Positions 33,235 to 46,991 of a stretch of 64,000 bases of DNA are shown in pieces. This stretch comes from Kordiimonas pumila (GTDB taxonomy: Bacteria; Pseudomonadota; Alphaproteobacteria; Sphingomonadales; Kordiimonadaceae). Both the position numbers and the translations under genes were made by a program. Location of the stretch: contig NZ_CP061205.1 in the NCBI RefSeq assembly GCF_015240255.1, positions 1,199,501 to 1,263,500 on the forward strand, read 5' to 3'. The notes under the pieces were generated by a model. The model saw only the letters and a program-made list of their open reading frames with translations, was not told the origin of the DNA and made no database searches. The first letter of the stretch is position 1. The number at the start of each line of letters is the position of its first letter.

Positions 33235-33256
33235 CGCTGACTAGGGGGCAATAGGC

Positions 33257-34205: not shown

Positions 34206-34259
34206 AAAAAAAGAGCCACCTTAATGGTTCTGGCTGAAGGTATCGCGACCTTCAACCAG
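34206..34259. terminator. Bidirectional terminator between the sulfotransferase and NhaC genes
   Basis: Two overlapping hairpins are present. CTGGCTGAAGGT (34230-34241) pairs with ACCTTCAACCAG (34248-34259) with one mismatch, loop ATCGCG. On the minus strand AGCCA (34235-34231) pairs with TGGCT (34218-34214) and is followed by a run of seven T (34212-34206). The second is a standard intrinsic terminator for the leftward NhaC operon. Confidence 0.8.
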
Positions 34260-34274
34260 ATATTTAAACGCCGT

Positions 34275-35744
34275 TTAGGCCGTTTCACTTTCATCAAGTT
34301 TGGTAATCTTGATGTTTAGGAAGCCATATACGATCGCCGTTATTGGGCTGATAATGTTGAAGAATGCAAAGGGCGCATAAGCGAAGGTTGCAACCCCGAG
34401 GGTGGAGGCCATAAAGGCCCCGCAGGTGTTCCACGGCACAAGGGCGGAGGTCATGGTGCCCGCATCTTCCAGAGTACGAGACAGGTTCTGGGGCGCAAGG
34501 CCGCGCCGCGCAAATTCCATCATATACATACGGCCGGGTAGCACGATGGAGATATACTGGTCGCCCGCTACAATGTTCATGCCGATAGCGGTGAACACGG
34601 TGGTCATGATAAGCGAACCAGTGCCGCGCACATGCTTTAGGGCACCTGTCACAATGCGCGTTAGCAGGCCGGTTTTCTCCATAACGCCGCCAAAACACAT
34701 GGCAGAGATAATCAGCCATACGGTGCTGAGCATGCTGCTCATCCCGCCGCGCGATAGCAGTTCGTCGAGCGTGGCATCACCTGTGCTGGCCACATACCCA
34801 TGTGTCATGGCAGCCCACAGGCCTTTAAGAACGGCAAGCGGTGTGCTGAGGTCGCCAGCACTGTCGCCGAACGCACGGGTGGACTCGAACTGGAACAGGA
34901 CAGCCACGATACAGCCCGTAACGGTGCCAATGGTAATGGTTGGCAGAGCGGGCACTTTTTTAACGGCAAGGGTAAGCAGAACAATAAGCGGAATGAAGGC
35001 CACAAAACCGAGGTTGTAGTTTTCTTCCAGCAGCGCACGGGTTTTGATAATGCTTTCTACAGTGCCTTCGCCGTTTACACCGCCCCAGCCGATCCAGGTA
35101 AAGAGGATAAGTGAGATGATAAGGGACGGGGTTGTGGTCCAGAACATATGACGGATATGGGTGAACAGGTCTACGTTCACCATGGCGGGCGCTAGGTTGG
35201 TAGTGTCTGATAGCGGCGACATTTTATCGCCGAAATAGGCACCGGAAATAACGGCACCGGCGGTAATTTCCGGCGAAAGGCCCAGAATGTTTGAAATGCC
35301 AACAAGGGCCAGCCCCACGGTGGCCGCTGTTGTCCACGAGCTACCAATAGAAGCGGCCACGCAAGCGCAAATAATAAGGGTAGCCGGGTAGAAGAAGCCG
35401 GGGTCAAGCACGCCGAGACCAAGGTGGATAACAGCGGGCGCCGTGCCTGCCAGCATCCAGCTACCAATCATGGAACCAACCATAAGAAGGATAAGGCAGG
35501 CGCGCATTGCCAGCATAATGCCGTCAATAATAGCGCTTTCAAGGTCTGCATATTTTTGCCCGCGCGATAAGCCAACAATGACAGCAACTGCAGCTGAAAA
35601 CAAAAGCGCAAGCTGGTTGGGGCCGCCTGCTGCGCCGTCGCCGAAAAGGCTAACAGCCGCAGTGAGCATCAAGATAAGGCTGACAAGCGGCAGAAAGGCG
35701 AGCCATAATGGGATGTTTTCGGCTTTTGAGGTATTAGTGGTCAC
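34275..35744 (-). CDS. NhaC-type Na+/H+ antiporter family permease
   Basis: An inner-membrane protein of 489 residues with about twelve hydrophobic segments. Family features include IGSSWTTAATVGLALVGI, SGAYFGDKMSPLSDTTNLAPA, GDQYISIVLPGRMY and LSRTLEDAGTMTSALVPWNTCGAF, all typical of the NhaC/ArcD-like ion transporter superfamily. Members exchange Na+ for H+, or carry malate/lactate or amino acids, so a substrate role in the neighbouring catabolic unit is possible. The GTG start at 35744 has AGGAG 9 bases upstream. It is the last gene of the LysR-aminotransferase-deacetylase-NhaC row, 38 bases after the deacetylase stop. Confidence 0.88.
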   Translation of the reverse strand: MTTNTSKAENIPLWLAFLPLVSLILMLTAAVSLFGDGAAGGPNQLALLFSAAVAVIVGLSRGQKYADLESAIIDGIMLAMRACLILLMVGSMIGSWMLAGTAPAVIHLGLGVLDPGFFYPATLIICACVAASIGSSWTTAATVGLALVGISNILGLSPEITAGAVISGAYFGDKMSPLSDTTNLAPAMVNVDLFTHIRHMFWTTTPSLIISLILFTWIGWGGVNGEGTVESIIKTRALLEENYNLGFVAFIPLIVLLTLAVKKVPALPTITIGTVTGCIVAVLFQFESTRAFGDSAGDLSTPLAVLKGLWAAMTHGYVASTGDATLDELLSRGGMSSMLSTVWLIISAMCFGGVMEKTGLLTRIVTGALKHVRGTGSLIMTTVFTAIGMNIVAGDQYISIVLPGRMYMMEFARRGLAPQNLSRTLEDAGTMTSALVPWNTCGAFMASTLGVATFAYAPFAFFNIISPITAIVYGFLNIKITKLDESETA

Positions 35745-35782
35745 AGTGTTTCGCTCCTGATCGGCCCTGTTATGATTATCTG

Positions 35783-36808
35783 TTATGGTGTTTCAAGGCC
35801 GTTTAAAAATTGTGTTAAATTATGTCCCAAAATATCACTCAAATATCCACCTTCCTGTATCACAGCAGTGGGGCAAGGAAGGCTGGCGGCGATCATACAG
35901 CCAATTTCGCGGAAGCCAACAGGGGAAATGCTAAGGCCCCCAAAAGGGTCATCCTCTGAAGCATCAAGCCCGAGCGCAATGACAAGGGCATCAGGTGCAA
36001 AGGCTTCAATACGGGTAAGGGCGGTTTGTAGTGTTGCCAGATATTCAGCATCGGCTGTTTTGCGCGGTAGTGGCAGGTTCATATTATAGCCAAGTCCGCG
36101 CCCTGCGCCGCGCTCTGCCGCATGGCCCCAGAAAAACGGGTAAAATCGCACCGGGTCTGCGTGGATCGATACGGTAAGCACATCGTCGCGGTTATAAAAA
36201 ATCTGCTGTGTGCCGTTGCCGTGGTGCAGGTCTACATCCAGAATGGCAACACGCGGGTATTTTTGTTGCAGGTGTGCGGCGGCAATAGCGCTATTGTTGA
36301 AATAGCAAAAACCCCCGGCAATATCTGCGCTGGCATGGTGGCCGGGTGGGCGGCATAGGCCGTAGGCCAGCTTGTCGCCAGTAAGGACGGCATTGGCGGT
36401 ATCAACCGCTGTCCATGCGCTCCAGCAAATGCTGTCCCATGTGTCGGCGGTGATCGGGCTTGAAGCATCTGACATATGATAGCCTGCCTGCGCCACCACA
36501 GAGGCGGGGTAATGGCCATCCCGTGTGGTGGGGCGAATGTCGGGGATAACAGCGTCAGATGCACCTTTGATATACCCCCAGCGCTTGTAGGCGTGTTTCA
36601 GAAAGGCCAGATATTCCGGTGTATGAACTTTGGCGATTGGCCCCATGCCGTGGTTTTGTGGTTCGTGCAGGCTGCAACCAGCAGCAAGGGCACCTGCGCG
36701 CAGCCGGTTTATTCGCTCTGGCATTTCTGGGTTTTGTTCAAAAACACCATTTTCCAGAAAATGCTCTGGGTAGTGTGCGGCTTGCTTATCTGAGAGAAAT
36801 GCTTTCAT
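35783..36808 (-). CDS. HDAC-like acetylpolyamine amidohydrolase family deacetylase
   Basis: A zinc deacetylase of 341 residues. The full active site of the class II HDAC / acetylpolyamine amidohydrolase family is present: LCRPPGHHA (His pair), ILDVDLHHGNGTQ (Asp and His zinc ligands), LGLDASEDDPFGGLS (third zinc ligand) and EGGYLSDILG (catalytic Tyr). Bacterial relatives remove acetyl from N-acetylputrescine, N-acetylcadaverine and similar omega-acetamido compounds. It lies 12 bases after the aminotransferase gene, has AAGGA 8 bases before its ATG, and is in the LysR operon. A role in deacetylating an omega-acetamido acid, such as 4-acetamidobutyrate, fits the neighbours (inference). Confidence 0.9.
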   Translation of the reverse strand: MKAFLSDKQAAHYPEHFLENGVFEQNPEMPERINRLRAGALAAGCSLHEPQNHGMGPIAKVHTPEYLAFLKHAYKRWGYIKGASDAVIPDIRPTTRDGHYPASVVAQAGYHMSDASSPITADTWDSICWSAWTAVDTANAVLTGDKLAYGLCRPPGHHASADIAGGFCYFNNSAIAAAHLQQKYPRVAILDVDLHHGNGTQQIFYNRDDVLTVSIHADPVRFYPFFWGHAAERGAGRGLGYNMNLPLPRKTADAEYLATLQTALTRIEAFAPDALVIALGLDASEDDPFGGLSISPVGFREIGCMIAASLPCPTAVIQEGGYLSDILGHNLTQFLNGLETP

Positions 36809-36820
36809 GGTTTATGTCCT

Positions 36821-38149
36821 TCATAGGCCGTTTTCATGGGCGAACTGCTTTAGGCTGGCGGTAAGTGTTTCAAGGATTTCTGCCACATGGGCGGGGGTTG
36901 AAATCATAGGTGGGCAAACAAGGAAATGGTCGCCCTCAAACCCGCCTCGGGTGCGCCGTGGGTAAATAATCAGGCCTTTATCATAGGCTATGTCGCTTAG
37001 TTTGAGGTACGCGTTCATATCTTTGGGGAGCGGTGCCATGGTTTCCTTGTTGCTAACCAGTTCAAACGCGAGCAGCAGGCCTTTGCCGCGCACATCGCCT
37101 ATAAAGGAAAAGTCTGTCATCAGGCCTTCAAGACCCTGTTTTAGTAGGGTGCCGACCGTGACAGTGTTTTCCATCAGGCCTTTACTGGTTATTTCGTGCA
37201 GCACCGCAAGCCCTGCCGCGCAGGCAATAGGGTTGCCTGCATAGGTGTGGCCGTGTTGAAAGCCACCGGCATCAAGCACTGTTTCAACAATATGGTCTTT
37301 GGCTGTTACGGCACCAAGCGGCACATAGCCAGCGCCAAAGCCTTTTGAAAGCGCAACAATATCGGGGTTTATGTTCCAGTGTTCGGCTGCCAGAAAGGCG
37401 CCGGTTCTGCCTACGCCGGTCATCACTTCATCGTAAATAAGCTGCACGCCGTGCTCGTCGCAGATATCACGCACACGCTGATAATAGCTGTCGGGGGCTA
37501 CTAGTGCACCGGTTGAAGCACCGCCCACCGGCTCCATAATGAAAGCCAGAACTGTTTCTGGCCCTAGCTCCAGTATTTTATCTTGCAGCATATTGGCGTA
37601 GCGCAAGCCGCGCTCATGGTTGGTCAGGCTATCTGTATCAAGGTAGCAGCGCGGCGCTGGTATTTTGGGCATATCCTTGTACATGGGCCTAAAGGGGTCA
37701 TTGAGAGGGGCGTAGCCGGTAAGGGCAAGTGCCCCAAAGGTAGAGCCATGATACGACGGCAGGCGCGATATAACACGGTAGCGGCTATCTTCGCCCTTCG
37801 CGACAGCATATTGACGCGCAAGTTTGACAGCGCTTTCAACAGCCTCTGAGCCACCAGAGACAAAAAACACCTTGTCGTGGCCCTCTGGGCTAAGGCCCGC
37901 TACGCGCTCGGCCAGGTTTTCTGCGGCTTCGTTTTCAAAGTGCAGGCGGTAGCCAAAGGTGGCCTTTGCCATTTGCTTCTGCATGGCTGCCAGCACATTG
38001 GGGTTTGAATGGCCAATGTTGGAAACCATGGCCCCGCTTGAGCCATCCAGATATTTTTTGCCGTGAATATCCCACATATAAACGCCTTCGGCGCGGTCAA
38101 GAAACGGGCGGCGTAGGCGTGACTGGTAAAAAAGGTGCGATGGTTTCAT
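36821..38149 (-). CDS. Class III (omega) aminotransferase, PLP-dependent
   Basis: An aminotransferase of 442 residues from the group that handles omega-amino and beta-amino substrates. Landmarks: GKKYLDGSSGAMVSNIGHSNP, VSGGSEAVESAVKLARQ (phosphate-binding), LIYDEVMTGVGRTGAFLA (Asp bound to the pyridine nitrogen), and ALSKGFGAGYVPLGAV with the Schiff-base Lys. Length is normal. The ATG overlaps the LysR stop by four bases (ATGA), so translation is coupled. In the context of a divergent beta-keto acid cleavage enzyme, conversion of a beta-amino acid to a beta-keto acid is the most coherent role (inference). Taurine, beta-alanine or polyamine transamination are alternatives. Confidence 0.9.
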   Translation of the reverse strand: MKPSHLFYQSRLRRPFLDRAEGVYMWDIHGKKYLDGSSGAMVSNIGHSNPNVLAAMQKQMAKATFGYRLHFENEAAENLAERVAGLSPEGHDKVFFVSGGSEAVESAVKLARQYAVAKGEDSRYRVISRLPSYHGSTFGALALTGYAPLNDPFRPMYKDMPKIPAPRCYLDTDSLTNHERGLRYANMLQDKILELGPETVLAFIMEPVGGASTGALVAPDSYYQRVRDICDEHGVQLIYDEVMTGVGRTGAFLAAEHWNINPDIVALSKGFGAGYVPLGAVTAKDHIVETVLDAGGFQHGHTYAGNPIACAAGLAVLHEITSKGLMENTVTVGTLLKQGLEGLMTDFSFIGDVRGKGLLLAFELVSNKETMAPLPKDMNAYLKLSDIAYDKGLIIYPRRTRGGFEGDHFLVCPPMISTPAHVAEILETLTASLKQFAHENGL

Positions 38150-39216
38150 GCTGTTTTCTGTTTCATGCTGTTTTCAGGGTTTATCTTTTGGCTGCCATAG
38201 GTGCGTGCCGTGAGAGATGTTTTTTTAATAAGGCCTGTCAGGCTCTCAAGGAAGGCAGCCTCGGCCGCGTTCAGGTTTGCCTTTGGGTGGCTTACCAGAA
38301 ATATATCAACAGCGGGGGTCCCGGTGTAGGGTGGGAGTTGCCACAGGCGCTTGTTTATAATGTCGCGCTCTACCACATGAATGGGTAGGGGCCCAAAACC
38401 AAGGCCCGCCGTAATCATGCGGCGTACTTCCTCAAGGTTATTGGAAACACCAGCCACTTTGTCGCTAAACTGGGCCTGGGCCCTGACGGCAGCGACAGGG
38501 TGCAGCAAGCCGCCCAGGTCATCGGTTGAAAAGCTGACACGCTCAAAGTCGCGCATGTCTTCAAGCTTCAGGTTTTCCTTGCCGTAAAGCGGGTGTGTGG
38601 GGCCGCAAAAAAAGCCAAAATGTTCGCGGTAAAAAAGGGTAGACTCCAGTTCAGGGCGCTTGTCGCGCATCAGGCATACGCCGAAGGTTGCCTGCTTTGA
38701 AAGCACTGTCTCGACCACATTATGGCTGCTTTGGATCGAGATTGAAAAAGAGGTTAGCGGGTTTTCCTTATGAAAGGCTGCAATCGCTTGGTCCAGCAGC
38801 GGGGTCATGACATGGCTTGTCATGCAAATGGTGATATGGCCCTCAACTTGTTCGCTCATACTGGAAAGCAGGTTTGGCAGGCGGGTGATGGAGCCAAAAA
38901 TTTCCCGGCATTCATGGTACAGGGCCTTGCCGTGGCGGGTGAGCGTAAAATTACGCGGGTCGCGCTGCGCAAGCTGGCACCCCAGCATGGTTTCAAGCCG
39001 CCTGAGCGCGTTACTCACCGTTGGCTGCTTTAGACCCAGATAGCGCGCGGCACCGGTTATGCTGTTCTGTTCTGCAATAACCATAAAGGTGCGCAGCAGG
39101 TTCCAGTCCATGTTCCACGGGCTTGGGGCCGGGCTTTGGTCATTCGGCGTAAGCATATTTCTGGGTGTATCATCTTTTGGGGTCATGGTATCATTCATTA
39201 AAACTATGTTTGACAT
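38146..39216 (-). CDS. LysR-family transcriptional regulator
   Basis: A LysR regulator: an N-terminal winged helix (WNLLRTFMVIAEQNSITGAARYLGLKQPTVSNALRRLETMLGCQL, about residues 38-82) and a substrate-binding domain to the end. The first 35 residues before the helix are unusually long for LysR. In-frame ATGs at 39198, 39186, 39156 and 39111 are alternative starts, none with a clear ribosome site. It is transcribed away from the BKACE gene, with 71 bases between, and is the first gene of its own operon. It is therefore the likely regulator of both arms, sensing a pathway intermediate (family behaviour; the specific ligand is unknown). Confidence 0.9.
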   Translation of the reverse strand: MSNIVLMNDTMTPKDDTPRNMLTPNDQSPAPSPWNMDWNLLRTFMVIAEQNSITGAARYLGLKQPTVSNALRRLETMLGCQLAQRDPRNFTLTRHGKALYHECREIFGSITRLPNLLSSMSEQVEGHITICMTSHVMTPLLDQAIAAFHKENPLTSFSISIQSSHNVVETVLSKQATFGVCLMRDKRPELESTLFYREHFGFFCGPTHPLYGKENLKLEDMRDFERVSFSTDDLGGLLHPVAAVRAQAQFSDKVAGVSNNLEEVRRMITAGLGFGPLPIHVVERDIINKRLWQLPPYTGTPAVDIFLVSHPKANLNAAEAAFLESLTGLIKKTSLTARTYGSQKINPENSMKQKTA

Positions 39217-39287
39217 TTATAAGATAAGATAATCAAATGATAGAGCGTTAACAAACAAGATCAAGCGTTATTTGTGGTGAAACGAAT
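39217..39287. promoter_or_regulatory. Divergent promoter region, LysR / BKACE operons
   Basis: These 71 bases separate two divergent operons. The heptamer AGCGTTA occurs twice (39244-39250 and 39264-39270), 20 bases apart, close to two helical turns. Such spacing suits two regulator contacts on one face of the DNA. The left half is AT-rich and can hold the LysR-side promoter. The ribosome site GGTGA before the BKACE ATG lies at the right end. Confidence 0.5.
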
Positions 39288-40220
39288 ATGCCTCGAAAAA
39301 TTATCATTACCTGTGCTGTAACCGGCTCTATTTATACACCGACCATGTCGCCGCACCTGCCGGTAACGCCTGCTGAAATTGCGGCAGCTTCTATTGACGC
39401 GGCAAAGGCTGGGGCCGCGATTATCCACTTACATGCGCGGGTACCAGAAGATGGCAGGCCGAGCGCAGACCCTGCGCACTTTATGGAATTTTGCCCGGTT
39501 ATTGATGCGGCAACAGATGCGGTGCTGAACATCTCAACCGGGGGTAGCTCGCTGATGTCGCTGGACGAACGCCTTGCGCCCGCGCGGGCCATCAGCCCTG
39601 AAATGTGCTCGCTTAATATGGGGTCCATGAACTTTGGTATTTTTACGCTCAAGCGCAAATACGAGAACTGGAAACACGACTGGGAACCGAAACTGCTGGA
39701 GGCCACACGCCACACACTGTTCACTAATAGTTACGCTAATATTGAAGATATTCTGGCTGATCTCGGTGAAAAGGGCGGTTCGCGTTTTGAGTTTGAATGT
39801 TATGACATGAGCCATATTGAAACCCTTGCTTACTATTTGCGACAGGGCAAAGTGAAGGCCCCGCTTTATGTGCAATTTGTGCTGGGTGTTATGGGCGGCA
39901 TTGGTGCGAGCCCTGAAAACCTGATGGCGATGAAAGCCTCGGCAGACCGTTTGCTGGGTGATGCGTACCAGTTTTCTGTACTTGCGGCAGGACGGCACCA
40001 GATAGAGCTTGCAACCTTGGGCGTTATTTTGGGCGGTAACGTGCGGGTTGGGCTTGAAGACAGCCTTACCATTCCGCCCGGCAGGCTGGCGACCAGTAAC
40101 GCCGAGCAGGTGCGAAAAATCCGTACCATCATTGAGGAAATGGGCTACGGTATTGCAACCGCTGACGAGGCGCGCACCATGCTCGACCTTAAAGGCAGAG
40201 GGGCCATTAGTCTGGCTTGA
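39288..40220 (+). CDS. Beta-keto acid cleavage enzyme (BKACE, DUF849 family)
   Basis: A protein of 310 residues. BKACE enzymes are zinc TIM barrels that react a beta-keto acid with acetyl-CoA to give acetoacetate and a new acyl-CoA. Family marks: KIIITCAVTGS at the start, AGAAIIHLHAR (zinc HxH), LNISTGGSS, EMCSLNMGSMNFG, FECYDMSHIE, QFVLGVMGGI, and LGGNVRVGLEDSL near the C-terminus (second metal-site region and substrate Arg/Glu). Characterised members include 3-keto-5-aminohexanoate and dehydrocarnitine cleavage enzymes. It heads a rightward operon of six genes ending in a hot-dog thioesterase. The substrate side chain is not readable by eye; the neighbours suggest an acetamido beta-keto acid. 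Confidence 0.92.
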   Translation: MPRKIIITCAVTGSIYTPTMSPHLPVTPAEIAAASIDAAKAGAAIIHLHARVPEDGRPSADPAHFMEFCPVIDAATDAVLNISTGGSSLMSLDERLAPARAISPEMCSLNMGSMNFGIFTLKRKYENWKHDWEPKLLEATRHTLFTNSYANIEDILADLGEKGGSRFEFECYDMSHIETLAYYLRQGKVKAPLYVQFVLGVMGGIGASPENLMAMKASADRLLGDAYQFSVLAAGRHQIELATLGVILGGNVRVGLEDSLTIPPGRLATSNAEQVRKIRTIIEEMGYGIATADEARTMLDLKGRGAISLA

Positions 40221-40224
40221 CCAT

Positions 40225-40698
40225 ATGACGCTAGAGATACAACAGGCAACCGCTGAAGATGTGGGTGTTATCCAGCAAATGCTGGTTGAGCTTGCCTGTG
40301 CGCTTGGCAAGCCGGGCGGCTATAAAGGCACCCCCGAAAGCCTCTTGAAATATGGGTTTTCTAATAAGCCCGCCTTTGAAGTGATGCTGGCCTATTCGCA
40401 AGGGATGCCAGTTGGGCTGGTGCTGTATTTTTTTGAATTTTCAACGTGGCGGTCAAAGCCCGGCATTTATGTGCAGGATCTGTATGTGGCAGATAGCGCA
40501 CGCGGGCTGGGTGTTGGGCGCAGGCTAACGGCGGCTGCCATTCAGCGTGCGGCGGCACAGGGTGCCACATACATGCGCCTTAGTGTGCATGCGAGCAATA
40601 GAGAAGCTGCGGCCTTTTATAAAGCGGTTGGTTTTACAGAGGCCGCAGACGAGTGCATGATGGTTCTGGAAGGGCCAGCTTTTACAGAATTTGGCTAA
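40225..40698 (+). CDS. GNAT N-acetyltransferase, SSAT/thialysine-type
   Basis: An acetyltransferase of 157 residues. The acetyl-CoA loop is ARGLGVGRRL, preceded by YFFEFSTWRSKPGIYVQDLYV. That stretch closely follows the order seen in spermidine/spermine and thialysine N-acetyltransferases (YYF..., W, ...YLEDFFV...RGFGIG). VHASNREAAAFYKAVGF closes the fold. This points to acetylation of a primary amine on a side chain or diamine. The ATG at 40225 is 4 bases after the BKACE stop; the frame extends upstream to 40009, but that part is out-of-frame overlap with BKACE. Its place between a beta-keto acid enzyme and a divergent deacetylase suggests protection of an omega-amino group (inference). Confidence 0.85.
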   Translation: MTLEIQQATAEDVGVIQQMLVELACALGKPGGYKGTPESLLKYGFSNKPAFEVMLAYSQGMPVGLVLYFFEFSTWRSKPGIYVQDLYVADSARGLGVGRRLTAAAIQRAAAQGATYMRLSVHASNREAAAFYKAVGFTEAADECMMVLEGPAFTEFG

Positions 40699-40708
40699 GG
40701 GGGCAAAA

Positions 40709-43246
40709 ATGATACGCAGGCGTAACATATTATGGAGCATAGCGGCTGTATGCAGCCTGATAACAAGCCCCGTGGCAGCAGAGCCAACACGGGTACCGGT
40801 GCTGGCAGGAGTTGCCCACCCTCATAGCTATTATTGGCGCGAAATGTACATGCCACAGCTTACAAGCGGGCCGTCTGCTGCCAGCTTTAGCCCTGACGGG
40901 CAATCGCTTATATATACGATGCAGGGCTCGCTCTGGCGGCAAAAGATTGGCGATGATACAGCGTACCAGCTAACCGCAGGGCCGGGTTATGATTACCAGC
41001 CTGACTGGTCGCCAGACGGTAACTATGTGGTTTTTACCCGTCAGCAGCATAATGCCCTGAACCTGATGGTGTTTGATGTTCAGGCAGGCAGTGTGCGGGC
41101 GCTGACAGAAGGCACTGATGTTAACCTTGAGCCGCGCTTTAGCCCAGACGGCAAACAGATTGTATATGTCTCAAGCCGAGATAGTGGCTATTTGGGTATC
41201 TATATTGCGGGCTTTACGGGTACTGCCCTTGCAGGCGACAGGCCCCTTGTTGCCGGGCGGGTTTCTGATACGTACCGCTATTATTATTCGCAGGCCGACC
41301 ATGCGGTGAACCCGTCGTGGTCGCCAGACGGTAAAACAGTTTATTATGTATCAAACCAAGAAATTGCATGGGGTACGGGTAATATATGGGCGGTGGCGGC
41401 AAGCGGTGAGGGCACGCCCAAGCTGGTGCTTGAGGAAGAAACCACATGGGCGACCCGCCCGCAAATAGACCACGGCGGCAAGCGCATGATTTACAGCAGC
41501 TATAGTGGCCGCCAGTGGCACCAGCTCTGGATCGCGACAGCAGAGGGCAAATACCCGCTCCCGCTTACTTTTGGTGATTTTGACATATGGCAGACACGCT
41601 TTAGCCCGGATGATACGCACCTTGTTTATAGCAGCAACGAAGCCGGTGGCCTTAACCTGATATACCACACGTTTGTGGGCGGTGAACGACAACAGATTAA
41701 AGCGAAAAACCGGGTTTACAAACAGCCCGTAGTGCCGGTTGAAATTAGCCTTAAAGACGGCAAGGGCAAGCCGCTTGCTAGCCGGGTTTCTGTGTTGGCT
41801 GCTGATGGCCGCCACTATGGGCCTGATAATAGCCGCATGCACGGCGACGATTTTGTTGATGCTGCACAAGCGGACCATGAAACCCATTATTTCCACTGCG
41901 ATCAACAATGCACAGTGATGGTGCCTGTAGGGGAAATAGAACTAACAGCCTCGCACGGCTATGATTACAAGCTGGCCGCGAGCACAGTGACGGTAAAGGC
42001 TGCGCGAACGGTTGAACTGGTTCTCGCTGAAAACAGCCTGCCTCAAAAATTTGGCCAATTTACCAGTGCTGATATGCATGTTCATATGAACTACGGCGGC
42101 AAATACAAGCAAACAGCGGCAACAATGGCGGCGGATGCCCGCGCCGAAAACCTCGATATTATTTATAACCTGATCGTGAATAAGGAAGAGCGCATCCCAG
42201 ACATCAGCGAGTTTAGTACGGATGTGAAACAAATAGACGGGGTCACCATTTACGAGGGGCAGGAATACCATAGCAGCTATTGGGGCCATATGGGCTTGCT
42301 GCATCTGGGCGATCATTACTTGACACCTGATTTTACCAGCTATTGGCATACGGGGCTGGCCTCGGCTTACCCGACAAACGGCATTATTGAGGATTTAGCC
42401 CACAAGCAAGGCGCGGTAACGGGTTATGTTCACCCGTTTGACGGCGTGCCCGACCCGGCGGCAAGCGGCAAGCTTACCCACAGCCTGCCTGTTGGTGTCG
42501 CGCTTGGTAAAACCGATTATCTGGAGGTGGTTTCTTTTGCGAACCACGAGGACACCGCCGCCGTTTGGTATAAGTTTTTGAACCTTGGGTTCCGTCTGTC
42601 GGCCGGGGCTGGCACAGATGCCATGACCAATTATGCTTCGCTGCGGGGGCCCATCGGCCTTAACCGCATGTTTCTGGACGGGGTGCAGGCAGACAAACCT
42701 GCAACGCTGAAAAAAGCAATAAAAGGCGGGCATGGCTTTGTAACCAATGGCCCGCTTGTTGGTTTACTGGTGAATAAGGTTAAACCGGGCGGTAGCCTTG
42801 CCTTGCCCGCAAACGGCAGCACCGTGAAAATACAGGCGGCGCTTAGGTCACCCGTACCGGTGGAAGCCTTTGAACTGGTGATGAACGGCGTTGTTGTTGC
42901 AACATTTGAAACGGACGCAGACAAAACCAGCGCTGATATAACCCTTGATCTGCCCGTTACCAAAAGTGGCTGGGTGCTGGTGCGTGCGGTAAGCAAAACA
43001 TCGCATCCGTTTGTGCAGGATATTTTCACCTATGCAACGACAAACCCTGTCTGGCTGGAGGTTGAGGGCAAACCGCACCATGCGCCTGCTGATGCAGCTT
43101 ATTTTACCGCGTGGCTTGACCGCGCAGCAGAGCACGCTGGCGCGAGGGATGATTATAACCATACGTGGGAGCGCGAGGCCGTGCTCGCGGAAATAGCGGC
43201 GGCCCGAAAAGTGTACGAGCATTTGGCAGAAGGAACCGCCCCATGA
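40709..43246 (+). CDS. Exported TolB-like propeller fused to CehA/McbA-type metallohydrolase
   Basis: A protein of 845 residues with a signal peptide (NILWSIAAVCSLITSPVAA). The first half holds PD40/TolB-type beta-propeller blades with the repeating SPDG signature (ASFSPDGQSL, PDWSPDGNYV, PRFSPDGKQI, PSWSPDGKTV, TRFSPDDTHL). From about residue 450 there is a PHP-like metallohydrolase: SADMHVHMNYG (HxH), EYHSSYWGHMGLLHL, TGYVHPFDG and SAGAGTDAM. It resembles the CehA/McbA family, whose members cleave ester or phosphoester bonds. Substrate unknown. The ATG at 40709 follows AAGGGGG; its TGA overlaps the ATG of the peptidase gene (ATGA). Confidence 0.85.
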   Translation: MIRRRNILWSIAAVCSLITSPVAAEPTRVPVLAGVAHPHSYYWREMYMPQLTSGPSAASFSPDGQSLIYTMQGSLWRQKIGDDTAYQLTAGPGYDYQPDWSPDGNYVVFTRQQHNALNLMVFDVQAGSVRALTEGTDVNLEPRFSPDGKQIVYVSSRDSGYLGIYIAGFTGTALAGDRPLVAGRVSDTYRYYYSQADHAVNPSWSPDGKTVYYVSNQEIAWGTGNIWAVAASGEGTPKLVLEEETTWATRPQIDHGGKRMIYSSYSGRQWHQLWIATAEGKYPLPLTFGDFDIWQTRFSPDDTHLVYSSNEAGGLNLIYHTFVGGERQQIKAKNRVYKQPVVPVEISLKDGKGKPLASRVSVLAADGRHYGPDNSRMHGDDFVDAAQADHETHYFHCDQQCTVMVPVGEIELTASHGYDYKLAASTVTVKAARTVELVLAENSLPQKFGQFTSADMHVHMNYGGKYKQTAATMAADARAENLDIIYNLIVNKEERIPDISEFSTDVKQIDGVTIYEGQEYHSSYWGHMGLLHLGDHYLTPDFTSYWHTGLASAYPTNGIIEDLAHKQGAVTGYVHPFDGVPDPAASGKLTHSLPVGVALGKTDYLEVVSFANHEDTAAVWYKFLNLGFRLSAGAGTDAMTNYASLRGPIGLNRMFLDGVQADKPATLKKAIKGGHGFVTNGPLVGLLVNKVKPGGSLALPANGSTVKIQAALRSPVPVEAFELVMNGVVVATFETDADKTSADITLDLPVTKSGWVLVRAVSKTSHPFVQDIFTYATTNPVWLEVEGKPHHAPADAAYFTAWLDRAAEHAGARDDYNHTWEREAVLAEIAAARKVYEHLAEGTAP

Positions 43247-45252
43247 GCATAAGGTTAACTTTCGGCGGGGCGCTGGCTGTTTTTGCGGTTGCCGCTGGTT
43301 TAAGGGCGGAAGCAGATACCGCCAAAAGGCAGATGACGGTGGACGACCTTTACCTGATACAGGATGTATCTGGTCCGGCGCTGTCACCAGACGGCAAGCT
43401 TGTGGCCTATGTGGTAACTGGCCACGATACAGAGATAGACGCCGCTATCAGCGATATCTGGATGGTGGATTATAAGGGCGCTACCCCGCACCAGATAACA
43501 GCGGCAGATGATAAAAGCGAAAGCACGCCAAAGTTTAGCCCCGATGGCCGCTTTCTGGCCTATGTCGGGGAGGATGAGGATGACGGCAGCTCGCAGGTTT
43601 TTATCCGCACCTTAAAAGGCGGCAAAACCCGGCAGGCCAGTGATGTTGTGGGCGGTATTATTGATTTTGACTGGTCGCCAGACAGTAAGCGTATGCTGAT
43701 TACAGCCTTTATGGGCGGTGCTGAACCAAACGAGGCGGGAACAGAACCGCCCATCGTGATTGACCGCTTTCAATTTATGGAAGACTGGACCGGCTATTTG
43801 GCCGGGGCGCGGCGGCATATTTTGTTGTTGGATATAAAAACCGGCGATACACGCCCACTTACCCACGGCGACCAAGATTACTGGCTGCCGGCGTGGTCGC
43901 CAGATGGTAAAAGCATCGCTTATGTAACCAAAGCCGGGCCAGATGCTGACCGTACGATGAACTCAGATGTTTATATAATGGCAGTGGATGGCAATAGCCC
44001 GCCAAAACAGATTAGCACGTTTGAAGGCACCGATGCTGACCTTTACTGGGCCTCGCCGCCAGCGTGGTCACCAGATGGCAGAAAGCTGGCGTGGCTGCAA
44101 AGTGGTGAAAGCAAATGGATTTACTATGCGCCGTGGCAGCTTACGGTTGCTGACCTTAAAACAGGTACTGTAATGCCGCTTGCACGCGCTGATCGTAATT
44201 TTTATATGCCGAAATGGTCGGCGGATGGCACCGCGCTTTTTGCCTTGATGGAAGAAAACCGCAGCACCTATCTTGTGCGGGTAGATAGCACAACCGGTGC
44301 TATTACCCGGCTGAGCGACGGCAAGCGGTTTGCGCTAGACTATGCTGCCTCTGCAAACGGCAAGCTTGTGCTGCTGGATAGCACAGACACCAAGCCGTTT
44401 GAACTGTATGCGGTAGAGGGAGGCTTGCGCCCGCTTACACACCATAATGCGTGGCTTGAGGACGTGCAGCTTGCTGAAACAGAGGAATTTTCCTTTGATA
44501 GTGATGGCCACCAGATTGATGGTTTTATTGTGCGGCCAGTGGGTGCGGTGAAAGGTGTTCCGCTGCCTACCATATTTCGGTTGCACGGCGGGCCGGTGTA
44601 CCAGTTTAGCCACGAATTTATGAGCGACTGGCAGATTTATGCGGCTGCCGGTTATGCCGTTGTGGGTATTAACCCGCGTGGGTCATCGGGCAAGGGGTTT
44701 GATTTTGCCCGTTCTATTTATGCAAACTGGGGCCATGTTGATGTGGCTGATATTCTGGCAGGCACCGACCATATGGTGAATGCGGGTATTACAGACCCGA
44801 CCCGTATGGCGGTGGGCGGCTGGAGCTACGGCGGTATGCTTACCAATTATGTGATAGGCACGGACACGCGCTTTAAGGCGGCGATCAGCGGCGCGGGCAC
44901 CGCTAATATGTACGGCATGTACGGGCACGACCAATATACAGGCGGGTACGAGCTGGAACTGGGCACGCCGTGGCAAAACCCCGAAGCTTATGCGCGGGTT
45001 AGCTTTCCGTTTCTGCACGCCGATAAAATCACCACACCGACCCTCTATCAGTGTTCGGAAAAAGATTTTAACGTGCCGTGCCTTGGGGCAGAGCAAATGT
45101 ATCAGGCGCTTAAGTCTGTTGGTACCGAGACCCAGCTTGTTATATACCCCGGCCAGCACCACGGCATTAGCGTGCCCAGCTACCTGCACGACCGCATGCA
45201 GCGTAACCTGAACTGGTACGGGCACTATATTGGCACGGGAGCAAGCGAATGA
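43243..45252 (+). CDS. S9-family prolyl oligopeptidase-like serine peptidase, exported
   Basis: A protein of 669 residues with a short signal peptide (LTFGGALAVFAVAAGLRAEA). The N-terminal seven-blade propeller has SPDGK blades (ALSPDGKLVAY, PKFSPDGRFLAY, PAWSPDGKSIAY, PAWSPDGRKLAW). The C-terminal alpha/beta-hydrolase has RLHGGPVYQF, GGWSYGGMLTNY (nucleophile Ser), the Asp of SEKDFNVPCLGAEQ and the His of PGQHHGIS. Such enzymes cut short peptides, often at acyl-, Pro- or unusual bonds. Start and stop overlap both neighbours by ATGA, so it is tightly coupled in the operon. It may release free amino acid for the permease next door (inference). Confidence 0.92.
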   Translation: MSIRLTFGGALAVFAVAAGLRAEADTAKRQMTVDDLYLIQDVSGPALSPDGKLVAYVVTGHDTEIDAAISDIWMVDYKGATPHQITAADDKSESTPKFSPDGRFLAYVGEDEDDGSSQVFIRTLKGGKTRQASDVVGGIIDFDWSPDSKRMLITAFMGGAEPNEAGTEPPIVIDRFQFMEDWTGYLAGARRHILLLDIKTGDTRPLTHGDQDYWLPAWSPDGKSIAYVTKAGPDADRTMNSDVYIMAVDGNSPPKQISTFEGTDADLYWASPPAWSPDGRKLAWLQSGESKWIYYAPWQLTVADLKTGTVMPLARADRNFYMPKWSADGTALFALMEENRSTYLVRVDSTTGAITRLSDGKRFALDYAASANGKLVLLDSTDTKPFELYAVEGGLRPLTHHNAWLEDVQLAETEEFSFDSDGHQIDGFIVRPVGAVKGVPLPTIFRLHGGPVYQFSHEFMSDWQIYAAAGYAVVGINPRGSSGKGFDFARSIYANWGHVDVADILAGTDHMVNAGITDPTRMAVGGWSYGGMLTNYVIGTDTRFKAAISGAGTANMYGMYGHDQYTGGYELELGTPWQNPEAYARVSFPFLHADKITTPTLYQCSEKDFNVPCLGAEQMYQALKSVGTETQLVIYPGQHHGISVPSYLHDRMQRNLNWYGHYIGTGASE

Positions 45253-46520
45253 ACCGCACCCTTGGGCTTTGGGGTGTTGTTGCAACCCTTGTCGGTTATG
45301 TGATCGGTGCCAGTATTTTTATTCTGCCGGGGGAACTGGCGGGCACTGCTGGGCCGGGGGTTGTTATATCTTATCTGCTGGCGGCAGTGATAGCCGCTTT
45401 TTCCTGCCTTGTGGCGGGCCAGATAGGGGCTGTATTCCCCAGCGCAGGCGCGGGCTATGTGGCTGTGTCGCGGCTTTTGTCACCCTTCGCAGGCTTTATT
45501 GGCATCTGGCTGATGCTCGCAGCCTATATTATGGCGATTGTGCTTATTGCCCTTGGTTTTGCTGATTATTTTACCGCTGTATTCCCGGTTTTTAGCCGGT
45601 CTGCTGTGGCTTATGGGGTGGTGGCATTTTTTATCCTTGCAAACCTTGGTAACCTTACATTTCTGATGCGCATACAGGGCTTTCTGGTTTTGTGTTTTAT
45701 GGCGGCGCTTGTGGCGGTGTCTGGCGGGGGTCTTGCCGCGATTGAACCCGCAAACATTACCCCTTTTATACCGTCTGGCTGGGGGCCGGTGCTGTATGCA
45801 GCGGTGCCAGCCTTTTTTTCATACGGCGGCTTTATGGCAGTGATGGAAATGGCAGGCGAGATTAAGAAACCCGGTAAAACCATTCCTGCCGGGCTTATTA
45901 TCAGCTTTATTCTGGTGGTGGTTACTTATGTTGCCCTGTCGCTTGCGCTTGTGGGCATGATACCGTGGCAAGAGCTGGCGAGCGTGAAAGCACCGGTTAA
46001 AATAGTGGCGGAACAGCTTTTTGGTCGTGTGGGCGGTGTGTTCACAAGCTTTGCCATTATGGGGGCGGCAGCTACATCGATTAATGCGCTGGTGCTGGTT
46101 GCCTCGCGCGATATTTTTGCACTGGCACAGGACGGTTTACTGCCCCGCCGTGTTGCCCCGCAAGGCGAAACCAGCCTTGCACGCTCGGTTCTGGTTGTAG
46201 GTGTGTTTTCCCTGCTGGCTATCAGTCTTGGTAACTCTATTAGCGAATATGCTGTGTGGGTTTCGTCGTTCACACTTTTATTCCAGATCCTTGTTGGGGC
46301 GGCGCTGCTTTATGTGCCTAAAAAGGCTGCGGAGGCTTACGGGGCCTCAGGCTTTAAGCTTGGTATGGGCGGCATACAGTTTTCTGGCTGGGGGCTTATG
46401 CTTATTTCAGCTTTTTTCCTGTTGGTTGTGGTCGTGGGGTCACCCGCACATGCGGCATGGTCTGTGGTCTATATACTGGTGGGGGCTATGCTTTATAAAC
46501 TACGAAATAAAGGGGCATAA
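45249..46520 (+). CDS. APC-superfamily amino acid permease
   Basis: A membrane protein of 423 residues with twelve hydrophobic segments. The first helix has the APC unwound motif GYVIGASIFILPGELAGTAGPG, followed by PSAGAGYVAVSRLLSP and YGGFMAVMEMAGEIKKPGKTIP, typical of the APC family of proton-coupled or exchange amino acid and amine carriers. It starts in the ATGA overlap with the peptidase and ends 1 base before the thioesterase start. It probably imports the amino acid or amine released outside (inference). Confidence 0.9.
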   Translation: MNRTLGLWGVVATLVGYVIGASIFILPGELAGTAGPGVVISYLLAAVIAAFSCLVAGQIGAVFPSAGAGYVAVSRLLSPFAGFIGIWLMLAAYIMAIVLIALGFADYFTAVFPVFSRSAVAYGVVAFFILANLGNLTFLMRIQGFLVLCFMAALVAVSGGGLAAIEPANITPFIPSGWGPVLYAAVPAFFSYGGFMAVMEMAGEIKKPGKTIPAGLIISFILVVVTYVALSLALVGMIPWQELASVKAPVKIVAEQLFGRVGGVFTSFAIMGAAATSINALVLVASRDIFALAQDGLLPRRVAPQGETSLARSVLVVGVFSLLAISLGNSISEYAVWVSSFTLLFQILVGAALLYVPKKAAEAYGASGFKLGMGGIQFSGWGLMLISAFFLLVVVVGSPAHAAWSVVYILVGAMLYKLRNKGA

Positions 46521-46521
46521 T

Positions 46522-46938
46522 ATGGGTATGATGGAAAGTTACAGAGGAGTAGTGCACCCGTGGCTGTGTGACGGTATGGGGCACTTTACCACCCGGCACT
46601 ATACCGCAATGTTTGACGATGCCAGCTACCATTTGGCCTATGCCTGCGGGGTTGACCTAAGTTCTGAAAACCGGGAAAGCGGCTTTGTTGATGTGAAGCT
46701 GGAAATGAACTTCCTTTCAGAGCTGCGGAGCGGCGCGCTTGTTATCGTGCATAGTGGTATTTTAAAGCTGGGGCGCACATCTTTTACGGCGCGGCATGAA
46801 ATGCGAAATATTAAGGATATGTCGCTGGCGGCAACGCTGGACTCTGTTTCAGTGTTTTTTGACCTGAAAGCCAGAAAGGCTATGCCTATTGATGATACGT
46901 TCCGCACCAAAGCGGCAGCCCTAATGGTTGAGGGCTAA
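46522..46938 (+). CDS. Hot-dog thioesterase, carnitine-cluster type
   Basis: A protein of 138 residues in the 4-hydroxybenzoyl-CoA thioesterase-like fold: YRGVVHPWLCDGMGHFTTRHYTAMFDDASYHL places the catalytic acid in CDGMGH, and SGILKLGRTSFTARHEM is the central strand pair. This subgroup is known beside BKACE in carnitine degradation, where it hydrolyses betainyl-CoA. The same pairing with BKACE is seen here, so it likely hydrolyses the acyl-CoA that BKACE forms (inference from family and operon). The ATG at 46522 follows AGGGG. The frame is open from 46201, but upstream is overlap with the permease. It is the last gene before a hairpin. Confidence 0.85.
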   Translation: MGMMESYRGVVHPWLCDGMGHFTTRHYTAMFDDASYHLAYACGVDLSSENRESGFVDVKLEMNFLSELRSGALVIVHSGILKLGRTSFTARHEMRNIKDMSLAATLDSVSVFFDLKARKAMPIDDTFRTKAAALMVEG

Positions 46939-46944
46939 AAGAAA

Positions 46945-46968
46945 AGCGCGCGGCAGGGGCCACGCGCT
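46945..46968. terminator. Hairpin between the thioesterase and the convergent propeller lipoprotein gene
   Basis: AGCGCG (46945-46950) pairs with CGCGCT (46963-46968), with inner GGC/GCC pairing. On the minus strand it is followed by TTTTCTTTTA, so it terminates the leftward gene well. It may also stop the rightward operon. Confidence 0.75.
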
Positions 46969-46991
46969 CTATGGTGTGCTTTAAGGCCTGA

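What the first reader, a model, noticed from the sequence alone, without database searches (positions are those of the whole stretch)
34206..46970. A divergent ten-gene unit that may encode an acetylation-dependent pathway for a beta,omega-diamino acid (beta-lysine type)
Seen: one 71-base divergent region with a LysR regulator separates two arms, each closed by a hairpin. The arms hold a class III aminotransferase, an HDAC-like acetylamine deacetylase, a BKACE, an SSAT/thialysine-like GNAT, an amino acid permease and a hot-dog thioesterase, with an exported S9 peptidase and a CehA-type hydrolase. Known: a route for beta-lysine in some bacteria acetylates N6, transaminates to 6-acetamido-3-oxohexanoate (EC 2.6.1.65), cleaves it with CoA, and removes acetyl from the 4-acetamidobutyryl product. 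Inference: each step has a plausible gene here (GNAT, aminotransferase, BKACE, thioesterase, deacetylase), giving 4-aminobutyrate and acetoacetate. To my memory this route has few firmly assigned genes.
Basis: partly seen in the sequence, partly recalled or inferred. Interest (0 to 1): 0.85.

Follow-up and report, generated by a model that had tools for sequence, protein, structure and literature searches.

The report
Beta-lysine breakdown genes with acetyl mask
A marine bacterium carries a gene set that probably breaks down the unusual amino acid beta-lysine (or its acetylated, salt-protecting form) while one amine is masked by an acetyl group, a route known from old enzyme work but with few genes assigned to it.

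Summary
The ten-gene divergent unit is real and at the stated place. Only four genes form a mobile core: class III aminotransferase (AT3), BKACE, SSAT/thialysine-like GNAT and HDAC-like deacetylase. They recur in this order on Rhodobacteraceae contigs and rhizobial plasmids, and divergently in Kordiimonas-type and gammaproteobacterial loci. Thioesterase, permeases and exported hydrolases come and go. The BKACE pocket lacks the acidic residue of the lysine-fermentation enzyme, as a neutral, acetyl-masked substrate would need. One roseobacter operon type keeps AT3 but replaces BKACE by CoA-transferase plus thiolase and HDAC by an ArgE/DapE deacylase. Related operons on rhizobial plasmids, with a GNAT, sit beside or share a plasmid with a lysine 2,3-aminomutase-like gene, which points to beta-lysine. 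An HDAC relative exists in 13 of 13 core genomes, a close GNAT in 8, so N6-acetyl-beta-lysine, a known osmolyte, may be a direct substrate. Nothing is shown biochemically. Best reading: catabolism of beta-lysine and/or N6-acetyl-beta-lysine to acetoacetate and 4-aminobutyrate.

The parts
34275..35744 (-). NhaC-family Na+/H+ antiporter-like transporter; possible uptake of a cationic amino acid (inference)
   Evidence: TIGR00931 420.2 bits (cut-off 370), ArcD model 343.5 (cut-off 650); 75% relative in L016, 69% relative next to HDAC in L127
35783..36808 (-). HDAC-like N-acetyl-amine deacetylase
   Evidence: PF00850 240.2 bits; best solved relatives are acetylpolyamine amidohydrolases 3men, 9gkz, 6phr; PGHHA, DVDLHHG, GLDA and EGGY motifs
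36821..38149 (-). class III aminotransferase (AT3), proposed N6-acetyl-beta-lysine transaminase
   Evidence: PF00202 327.5 bits; best solved relative 3i4j; 28-row clade, SH-aLRT 99
38146..39216 (-). LysR regulator, transcribed away from BKACE
   Evidence: PF00126, PF03466; 44-47% relatives on rhizobial plasmids L129, L131-L133 (no control for how close unrelated LysR proteins come)
39217..39287 (.). 71-base divergent control region
39288..40220 (+). BKACE, proposed 6-acetamido-3-oxohexanoate cleavage enzyme
   Evidence: PF05853 340.9 bits; H47, H49, E170, R253, E257 invariant in 77 of 77 sequences compared
40225..40698 (+). SSAT/thialysine-type GNAT acetyltransferase
   Evidence: PF00583 57.2 bits; best solved relative 12jc 'Thialysine Acetyltransferase'; 39-42% to GNATs of plasmid operons of both builds
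40709..43246 (+). TolB-type propeller fused to CehA/McbA metallohydrolase, signal-peptide-like start
   Evidence: NF038032 224.1 bits, cut-off 80; found in L011 and L016 only, of 12 close loci
43243..45252 (+). S9 prolyl-oligopeptidase-type peptidase, signal-peptide-like start
   Evidence: PF00326 168.2 bits; L011 and L016 only, of 12
45249..46520 (+). APC-family amino acid permease
   Evidence: PF13520 122.4 bits; 3 of 12 close loci
46522..46938 (+). hot-dog (4HBT) acyl-CoA thioesterase
   Evidence: PF13279 58.0 bits; only NCBIfam match is the thioesterase end of the carnitine dehydrogenase model, 33.5 bits, cut-off 592
46943..46970 (-). terminator-like hairpin of the convergent gene 46992-48020, not of the plus arm

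Best explanation
The unit catabolises beta-lysine and/or its N6-acetyl form. Proposed order: uptake (APC permease, NhaC-family transporter), in this genome after exported hydrolases release bound material; the GNAT acetylates N6 of free beta-lysine (not needed if N6-acetyl-beta-lysine is taken up); AT3 transaminates the beta-amine to 6-acetamido-3-oxohexanoate; BKACE reacts this with acetyl-CoA to acetoacetate and 4-acetamidobutyryl-CoA; the thioesterase frees 4-acetamidobutyrate; the HDAC-like enzyme removes acetate, giving 4-aminobutyrate, which GABA transaminase and succinate-semialdehyde dehydrogenase encoded elsewhere finish, while a 3-oxoacid CoA-transferase takes up acetoacetate. The acetyl group keeps the amino-keto acid from cyclising and makes the side chain neutral for the BKACE pocket. 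Shown: genes, order, motifs, conservation, the replacement operon, the aminomutase linkage of related operons. Inferred: every reaction and the substrate.
For: Core conservation: AT3 lies on the opposite strand next to BKACE (LysR between them in 4) in 12 of 12 close loci (BKACE 72-85%); HDAC within 6 kb in 8, GNAT in 7. Among 39 of 53 more distant loci that have 3 kb on both sides, AT3 and HDAC occur together in 9, HDAC alone in 4, AT3 alone in 0, neither in 26 (score cut-offs were set). Of 12 plasmid records with AT3 at 60% or more, 10 hold an HDAC within 3 kb (3 of the 10 fetched); the other two are the replacement operon. Trees: core-partnered BKACEs need 3 label changes against 24 in shuffles; AT3s form one clade, SH-aLRT 99. 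Pocket: F197 and F229 together in 30 of 30 core-partnered BKACEs and 2 of 47 others (a pattern picked from the alignment). Position 15 is I or V in 30 of 30 (and in 43 of 47 others); the lysine-fermentation enzyme 2y7d has Glu there. A studied relative with Ile there, BKACE15, takes neutral beta-keto acids (PMC11961710, passages). Replacement: L110 and L114 (near-identical, so one case) have AT3 (66%), CoA-transferase A/B, ArgE/DapE deacylase and thiolase, nested in the AT3 tree. The L110 deacylase is 69%, thiolase 64% and CoA-transferase A 61% identical to those of an operon in Rhizobium C104 that also holds a GNAT (39% to the window's) and, just upstream, an aminomutase-like gene (TIGR03822, 555.9 bits, cut-off 396.25) with the residues aligned to D293, D330 and K337 of 2a5h kept (roles recalled). 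All 9 listed plasmids with this deacylase at 67-69% also carry this aminomutase at 79% or more. Four of 12 close loci have an S58 (beta-peptidyl aminopeptidase family, name recalled) gene within 6 kb. Own genome: 2 GABA transaminases, 1 SSADH, 2 3-oxoacid CoA-transferase A genes over cut-off.
Against: No lysine 2,3-aminomutase in the window's own genome (where controls ring, without control), so beta-lysine must come from outside. A close GNAT is missing from 5 of 13 core genomes. In L016's genome the best HDAC is only 46%, no closer than the window genome's second HDAC (47%), so the orthologue may be lacking there. The GNAT does not match the AblB beta-lysine acetyltransferase model. BKACE scores over the cut-off of a model named for 3,5-dioxohexanoate (469.7 against 430). 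The C104 aminomutase is below the cut-off of the proven lysine 2,3-aminomutase model (290.9 against 525.4), and its family also lies beside EF-P modification genes in 2 listed records; 4 further records (H110-H113) have the aminomutase at 78-79% without appearing among the listed deacylase records. The aminotransferases of L131-L133 are not of the AT3 group (26-29%), L129 has none within the operon, and L022 has BKACE-GNAT-HDAC with a 38% aminotransferase outside the AT3 clade. The aminomutase link runs through related operons, not the BKACE operon itself. S58 genes are common in these genomes (1-5 in 12 of 13), so their adjacency is weak evidence.
Confidence: 0.57

Rival explanations
1. Same chemistry on another beta-amino acid with a side-chain amine, for example beta-ornithine, giving N-acetyl-beta-alanyl-CoA instead of 4-acetamidobutyryl-CoA.
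For: The gene set fixes the reaction types but not chain length. Transporters beside the core differ.
Against: The aminomutase-like gene that travels with the related operons keeps the residues aligned with both lysine-contacting Asp residues of 2a5h (roles recalled). N6-acetyl-beta-lysine is a known natural compound (PMC4685198, passages).
Confidence: 0.16
2. A general beta-amino acid route (AT3 plus BKACE) for neutral beta-amino acids, with GNAT and HDAC serving unrelated amine handling.
For: AT-BKACE pairs without GNAT or HDAC nearby exist (L118, annotated; L112, my reading of the open frames). BKACE15 accepts neutral beta-keto acids and malonate semialdehyde (passages). BKACE passes the 3,5-dioxohexanoate model cut-off. 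In 4 of the 12 close loci no HDAC lies within 6 kb (L018 ends at a contig edge).
Against: An HDAC relative is in all 13 core genomes, 52% or more in 12, and among 39 distant loci this AT3 never lacks an HDAC. In the replacement operon a deacylase stands where HDAC does, which suggests that deacylation belongs to the pathway.
Confidence: 0.13
3. Polyamine or N-acetylpolyamine catabolism, with AT3 as an omega-transaminase and BKACE in a side role.
For: HDAC's nearest solved relatives are acetylpolyamine amidohydrolases. Pot-type transporter genes lie beside some core operons (L023, L048).
Against: BKACE needs a beta-keto acid, which polyamine transamination does not give (established chemistry). 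Transporter type is not constant. No aldehyde dehydrogenase is part of the core; two loci (L013, L017) have one a few kb away.
Confidence: 0.08
4. Carnitine-type route (dehydrocarnitine cleavage with a betainyl-CoA thioesterase).
For: The thioesterase's only NCBIfam match is the C-terminal part of the carnitine dehydrogenase model (33.5 bits, cut-off 592).
Against: No carnitine dehydrogenase over cut-off in 40 of 40 genomes searched, own included (none of the 14 control genomes passes the cut-off either, so there is no positive control). The core has an aminotransferase instead.
Confidence: 0.02

Closest known systems
Acetyl-dependent beta-lysine degradation (EC 2.6.1.65 route; recalled, and no held paper listed describes genes for it)
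   Same: Same proposed intermediates: N6-acetyl-beta-lysine, 6-acetamido-3-oxohexanoate, 4-acetamidobutyryl-CoA
   Different: Here the cleavage would be done by a BKACE and the deacetylation by an HDAC-like enzyme; none of the steps has been assayed for these proteins
Bacillus subtilis kamA/yod genes (KamA and YodT from PMC6522883, passages; the roles of yodP, yodQ, yodR, yodS recalled)
   Same: Aminomutase, class III aminotransferase, acetyltransferase, CoA-transferase and ArgE/DapE-type deacylase in one logic; the paper gives 3I4J as YodT's solved relative, and 3i4j is AT3's best
   Different: BKACE replaces the CoA-transferase step, HDAC replaces the deacylase, and no aminomutase is in this genome; no direct comparison with YodT could be made here
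Lysine fermentation with Kce and Kat (PMC3149608, passages)
   Same: A BKACE-family enzyme makes acetoacetate from a lysine-derived beta-keto acid
   Different: There the keto acid comes from a dehydrogenase and keeps a free amine; Kat acts on a CoA ester and is HemL-like. Score to the Kce model is 235.9 against a cut-off of 382
BKACE15 of Paracoccus denitrificans (8rio, 8rip, 9hnf; PMC11961710, passages and section 9)
   Same: Close subfamily (328.7 bits); its E171 and R254 align with E170 and R253 here
   Different: Genome context said to suggest aromatic degradation, physiological role unknown

Membership tests
BKACE (PF05853) | Pfam score over gathering cut-off | tested here: met
   340.9 bits against 24.8
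BKACE (PF05853) | zinc ligands and catalytic Glu/Arg present | tested here: met
   H47, H49, E257, E170, R253 in 77 of 77 rows; Glu and Arg by alignment to 8rio, zinc ligands recalled for 2y7d
BKACE (PF05853) | cleaves 6-acetamido-3-oxohexanoate with acetyl-CoA | not testable with these tools
   needs an assay; no docking tool here
3,5-dioxohexanoate:acetyl-CoA acetone transferase model (NF053538) | score over curated cut-off | tested here: met
   469.7 against 430
3,5-dioxohexanoate:acetyl-CoA acetone transferase model (NF053538) | gene context of phloroglucinol degradation (recalled context) | tested here: not met
   neighbours are aminotransferase, acetyltransferase and deacetylase
Lysine-fermentation Kce (NF052387) | score over curated cut-off; acid residue at the substrate amine | tested here: not met
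   235.9 against 382; I15 where 2y7d has Glu, mapped through L111
Aminotransferase models PRK07483 (NF005685) and PRK06917 (NF005375) | score over curated cut-off | tested here: not met
   452.4 against 485 and 418.9 against 535
N6-acetyl-beta-lysine transaminase (EC 2.6.1.65) | transaminates N6-acetyl-beta-lysine | not testable with these tools
   activity only; class III family met
HDAC-like acetyl-amine deacetylase (PF00850) | family score and catalytic motifs | tested here: met
   240.2 against 27.9; motifs
AblB beta-lysine acetyltransferase (TIGR03827) | match to the curated model | tested here: not met
   not among the 22 NCBIfam matches at E 0.001
Carnitine degradation | carnitine 3-dehydrogenase | tested here: not met
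   0 of 40 genomes over cut-off, own included; also 0 of 14 controls
Lysine-to-beta-lysine pathway | lysine 2,3-aminomutase in the same genome | tested here: not met
   none in G000
Lysine 2,3-aminomutase (TIGR03820), for the gene in L129 | score over curated cut-off | tested here: not met
   290.9 against 525.4; over the cut-off of the lysine-2,3-aminomutase-like model TIGR03822 (555.9 against 396.25)

The most novel reading that the evidence does not exclude
Gene-level solution of an aerobic beta-lysine / N6-acetyl-beta-lysine catabolic pathway that exists in two interchangeable builds: AT3-BKACE-(GNAT)-HDAC, and aminotransferase-CoA-transferase-deacylase-thiolase-(GNAT). Marine bacteria would use it to eat the methanogen and green-sulfur osmolyte N6-acetyl-beta-lysine and peptide-bound beta-lysine (hence S58 or S9/CehA hydrolases). 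On rhizobial plasmids the second build travels with an aminomutase copy and, in some, ATP-grasp or carboxylase-like ligase genes, as if beta-lysine compounds were both made and eaten there, opine-like.
Probability: 0.3. Interest if true: 0.8.

Novelty: new variant of a known kind. Interest (0 to 1): 0.6.

Why it matters
It would put genes on EC 2.6.1.65 and the 4-acetamidobutyrate deacetylation step, add a new physiological substrate to the BKACE family, and give a sink for N6-acetyl-beta-lysine, an osmolyte for whose consumers I saw no paper in the listings. It also offers S58 peptidases, which sit beside the core in some loci, a possible natural context. The predicted substrates are simple compounds, so the idea is directly testable.

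Tried and rejected
Carnitine route: set aside, no dehydrogenase over cut-off (no positive control). Free-amine lysine fermentation: rejected on model score and pocket residue. An endogenous aminomutase as source of beta-lysine: none in the own genome.

The KamA-like radical SAM proteins of L078-L083 first looked like the missing source. Their neighbours (PcaIJ-type CoA-transferase, 3-oxoadipyl-CoA thiolase, HemL-like aminotransferase) make a complete separate route, so I dropped them from the argument.

ORF calling in high-GC loci gave false frames and was replaced by tblastn. I first took the arginine in the AAGRHQ stretch of BKACE for the catalytic one; by 8rio numbering the proposed Arg is the one in RVGLED, so no point is made of its loss in 5 close loci. 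The BKACE tree is rooted on a very long branch (L111), so only the count of label changes is used. AT3 of L070 lies in two pieces and was left out of the AT3 tree by the length limit. Literature: the yod gene search and the last search returned mostly unrelated papers. Structure prediction and fold search were not used.


Full report
WHAT IS THERE. The window lies in a single-contig genome of 4.04 Mb. Its nearest listed relative at this locus is Kordiimonas gwangyangensis (L011, BKACE 85%), of the same genus by the tool's kinship (G010). Families were confirmed by Pfam and NCBIfam. The unnamed tenth gene is an NhaC-family transporter. Genes within each arm overlap or are 1-38 bases apart, so each arm can be one transcript (inference). 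The strong hairpin at 46943-46970 points the other way and would end the convergent gene 46992-48020.

WHAT IS CONSERVED. A pattern-based scan of 84,980 species genomes with the BKACE protein gave 65 loci (not exhaustive). Twelve have BKACE at 72-85% identity and 53 at 60% or less. In all 12, AT3 lies on the other strand next to BKACE, with LysR between them in 4. HDAC is within 6 kb in 8, GNAT in 7, thioesterase in 4 (a fifth, in L011, lies just beyond 6 kb), LysR in 4, permease in 3, CehA and S9 in 2, NhaC in 1, and an S58 peptidase in 4. L018 is cut off by its contig end beyond AT3, and AT3 of L070 lies in two pieces. The 12 come from Kordiimonadaceae, Emcibacteraceae, Halieaceae, Woeseiaceae, a xanthomonadal MAG and unplaced alphaproteobacterial MAGs, so the set seems to have moved between classes (inference). 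Of the 53 more distant loci, 39 have 3 kb on both sides. Among these, 9 have AT3 (65-67%) and HDAC together, 4 have HDAC without this AT3, none has AT3 without HDAC, and 26 have neither (the score cut-offs were set, and related genomes are not independent). The order AT3-BKACE-GNAT-HDAC on one strand was seen in L021, L023, L030, L048, L057 and L061; in L046, L063 and L069 the GNAT place gave no hit. On plasmids the same order appears in Phyllobacterium, Shinella and Pararhizobium, and without GNAT in Parasedimentitalea. Of 12 plasmid records with AT3 at 60% or more, 10 hold an HDAC within 3 kb (3 of these 10 fetched); the other two are the replacement operon below (both fetched). Transporters beside the core differ: by best match polar amino acid, Pot-type and branched-chain types, most scores below cut-off, and in Phyllobacterium a sugar ABC system. 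The conserved unit is therefore the four enzymes, not the ten genes.

TREES AND POCKET. In a BKACE tree of 77 rows (one fragment and three duplicates dropped) the core-partnered sequences (30, that is with AT3, or with GNAT and HDAC alone in L022, L051, L056 and L067) need 3 changes of label, against a mean of 24 in shuffles (the root is unsure, and near-copies favour clustering). All 77 keep the zinc and catalytic residues. F197 and F229 occur together in 30 of 30 core-partnered BKACEs and in 2 of 47 others (picked from the alignment, so a description, not a test). At position 15 the core has I or V, as have 43 of 47 others; the lysine-fermentation enzyme 2y7d has Glu (mapped through L111), which I recall as the contact to the substrate's free amine. 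[quoted passage not shown] A neutral pocket fits an acetyl-masked side chain, but would also fit other neutral keto acids, and BKACE passes the cut-off of a 3,5-dioxohexanoate model. An AT3 tree of 44 rows puts 25 core-partnered AT3s, the two of the replacement operon and L115 in one 28-row group with SH-aLRT 99. L070 was left out for length, and the 38% aminotransferase of L022, although next to BKACE-GNAT-HDAC, falls outside.

ISOFUNCTIONAL REPLACEMENT. Two roseobacter plasmids, L110 and L114, have the same type of AT3 (66%) after an amino acid ABC transporter, but then 3-oxoacid CoA-transferase A and B, an ArgE/DapE deacylase (PRK06837, 622.6 bits, cut-off 376) and a thiolase. They are nearly identical (deacylase 99%), so this is one case. 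Parasedimentitalea (L108) shares with them also the last two genes, annotated amidohydrolase and alanine racemase. Their AT3s nest inside the core group next to L023 (SH-aLRT 99). CoA-transferase plus thiolase does in two steps what BKACE does in one, and the deacylase stands where HDAC stood. This suggests that beta-keto acid cleavage and deacylation belong to one pathway.

LINK TO BETA-LYSINE. The L110 deacylase has 67-69% relatives on rhizobial plasmids. In Rhizobium C104 (L129) the order is aminomutase-like gene, CoA-transferase A, B, deacylase, thiolase, GNAT. In L131-L133 it is CoA-transferase A, B, deacylase, thiolase, GNAT, aminotransferase. These GNATs are 39-41% identical to the window's, about as close as the GNATs of BKACE operons on plasmids (39-42%); the window genome's own other GNATs are 29-31%. 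LysR proteins of L129 and L131-L133 are 44-47% identical to the window's (that of L129 lies some 5 kb from the operon, and no control for LysR in general was run). The aminomutase scores 555.9 bits to TIGR03822, 'lysine-2,3-aminomutase-like' (cut-off 396.25), but only 290.9 to the lysine 2,3-aminomutase model TIGR03820 (cut-off 525.4). It keeps the residues aligned with D293, D330 and K337 of 2a5h (recalled as the lysine contacts and the PLP lysine). All 9 listed plasmids with the deacylase at 67-69% also carry this aminomutase at 79-100% (one search counts 10 records in the 60-80% band, the tenth was not listed; five of the nine are Sinorhizobium meliloti). The distance from deacylase to aminomutase is about 2 kb in C104, 10 to 48 kb in seven and about 120 kb in one. 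Conversely, four more records with the aminomutase at 78-79% (H110-H113) are not among the listed deacylase records. The aminotransferases of L131-L133 are of another group (26-29%). The aminomutase family also serves EF-P modification (two listed records show it beside genX or epmA), so its presence alone proves little; its repeated company with this operon is what counts.

ACETYLATION LOOKS OPTIONAL. Among the 13 genomes with the 72%-plus core (own included), an HDAC relative exists in 13: 52% or more in 12, and 46% in L016's genome, which may not be the orthologue since the window genome's own second HDAC is 47%. In L015 and L025 it lies elsewhere; for L018 it starts another contig of the same genome, followed by NhaC and S58 (L127). 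A close GNAT exists in 8 of 13, at the core in each; the other 5 (L013, L014, L017, L019, L070) have none at E 1e-10. Those five are MAGs of unstated completeness, but at their core loci other genes follow BKACE. So deacetylation is the steadier step. N6-acetyl-beta-lysine is a known compatible solute of methanogens, green sulfur bacteria and a Bacillus (PMC4685198, passages). I therefore propose that the acetylated form is the direct substrate in GNAT-less members and one of two substrates in the window's organism.

REST OF THE ROUTE. The own genome has two GABA transaminases, one succinate-semialdehyde dehydrogenase and two 3-oxoacid CoA-transferase A genes over cut-off. It has no lysine 2,3-aminomutase (with ringing controls; without), so beta-lysine must be imported. 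The exported S9 and CehA hydrolases of the window, L011 and L016, and the S58 peptidases of L013, L014, L015, L025 and L127, could release it from peptides (inference). S58 genes are frequent in these genomes (1-5 in 12 of 13), so this is weak.

PRINT RECORD. In the held library, searches on BKACE (18 of 18 listed), beta-lysine degradation (25 of 41), the named intermediates (3 of 3), BKACE with HDAC and aminotransferase (7 of 7), beta-lysine catabolism (6 of 6, 12 of 71) and aminomutases in rhizobia (15 of 19,690) listed no paper that by title or abstract start assigns these genes; the library lacks most subscription journals. B. subtilis KamA makes beta-lysine in vitro and YodT is an uncharacterised aminotransferase with 3I4J as solved relative, also AT3's best (PMC6522883, passages). 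The roles of yodP, yodQ, yodR and yodS, the old enzyme work and the BKACE family paper of 2014 are recalled. PMC4922564 and PMC12133276 were seen in passages; they give substrate groups of the family but not residues.

VERDICT. Observation confirmed with small corrections.

Noticed in passing
L086:5157-10578, L087:4602-9950, L088:5712-11114, L089:9358-15600: A second beta-amino acid locus in core-carrying genomes: distant KamA-like radical SAM protein, PcaIJ-type CoA-transferase, HemL-like aminotransferase and a 3-oxoadipyl-CoA thiolase (675.3 bits, cut-off 605, in L086; families checked in L086 and L080 only). It could run 2-aminoadipate to 3-aminoadipate to 3-oxoadipate to succinyl-CoA, a route I do not recall as described.
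   Followed up: partly
L129, L131, L132, L133: Rhizobial plasmids combine the CoA-transferase/deacylase/thiolase/GNAT operon with an aminomutase copy and, in L129, L131 and L133, ATP-grasp or biotin-carboxylase-like ligase genes, as if beta-lysine compounds were both made and degraded there.
   Followed up: partly
L128:7392-8991: In Sinorhizobium meliloti ml56 the CoA-transferase genes of the operon are annotated as five short pieces, so that copy looks decayed.
   Followed up: no
L115:8348-8749: In Rhizobium sp. CB3171 a 402-base hypothetical gene stands where BKACE lies in the AT3-GNAT-HDAC operon.
   Followed up: no
L070:5999-7305: AT3 of this MAG matches in two pieces, so it is either broken or misassembled.
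   Followed up: no
L120:1600-10468: A Comamonadaceae plasmid has two annotated HDAC-family genes with class III aminotransferases, a phosphotransferase and a Zn-dependent hydrolase: another possible acetyl-masked amine pathway.
   Followed up: no
window 558-18377: One open frame of 5939 codons; its first third carries ketoacyl-synthase, ketoreductase, dehydratase and carrier domains of a large polyketide synthase.
   Followed up: partly
window 32551-34189: An aspartyl/asparaginyl beta-hydroxylase-like gene and a sulfotransferase lie next to the unit. In L011 and L016 the core is followed by two gene groups shared between those loci, which read to me as a TPR/sulfotransferase-like protein and a TonB receptor; no family search was run on them.
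   Followed up: partly
L051:10918-12398, L067:10915-12395, L022:10915-12404: BKACE, GNAT and HDAC overlap as three tightly linked genes without an AT3-clade aminotransferase nearby; L022 has a 38% aminotransferase instead.
   Followed up: no
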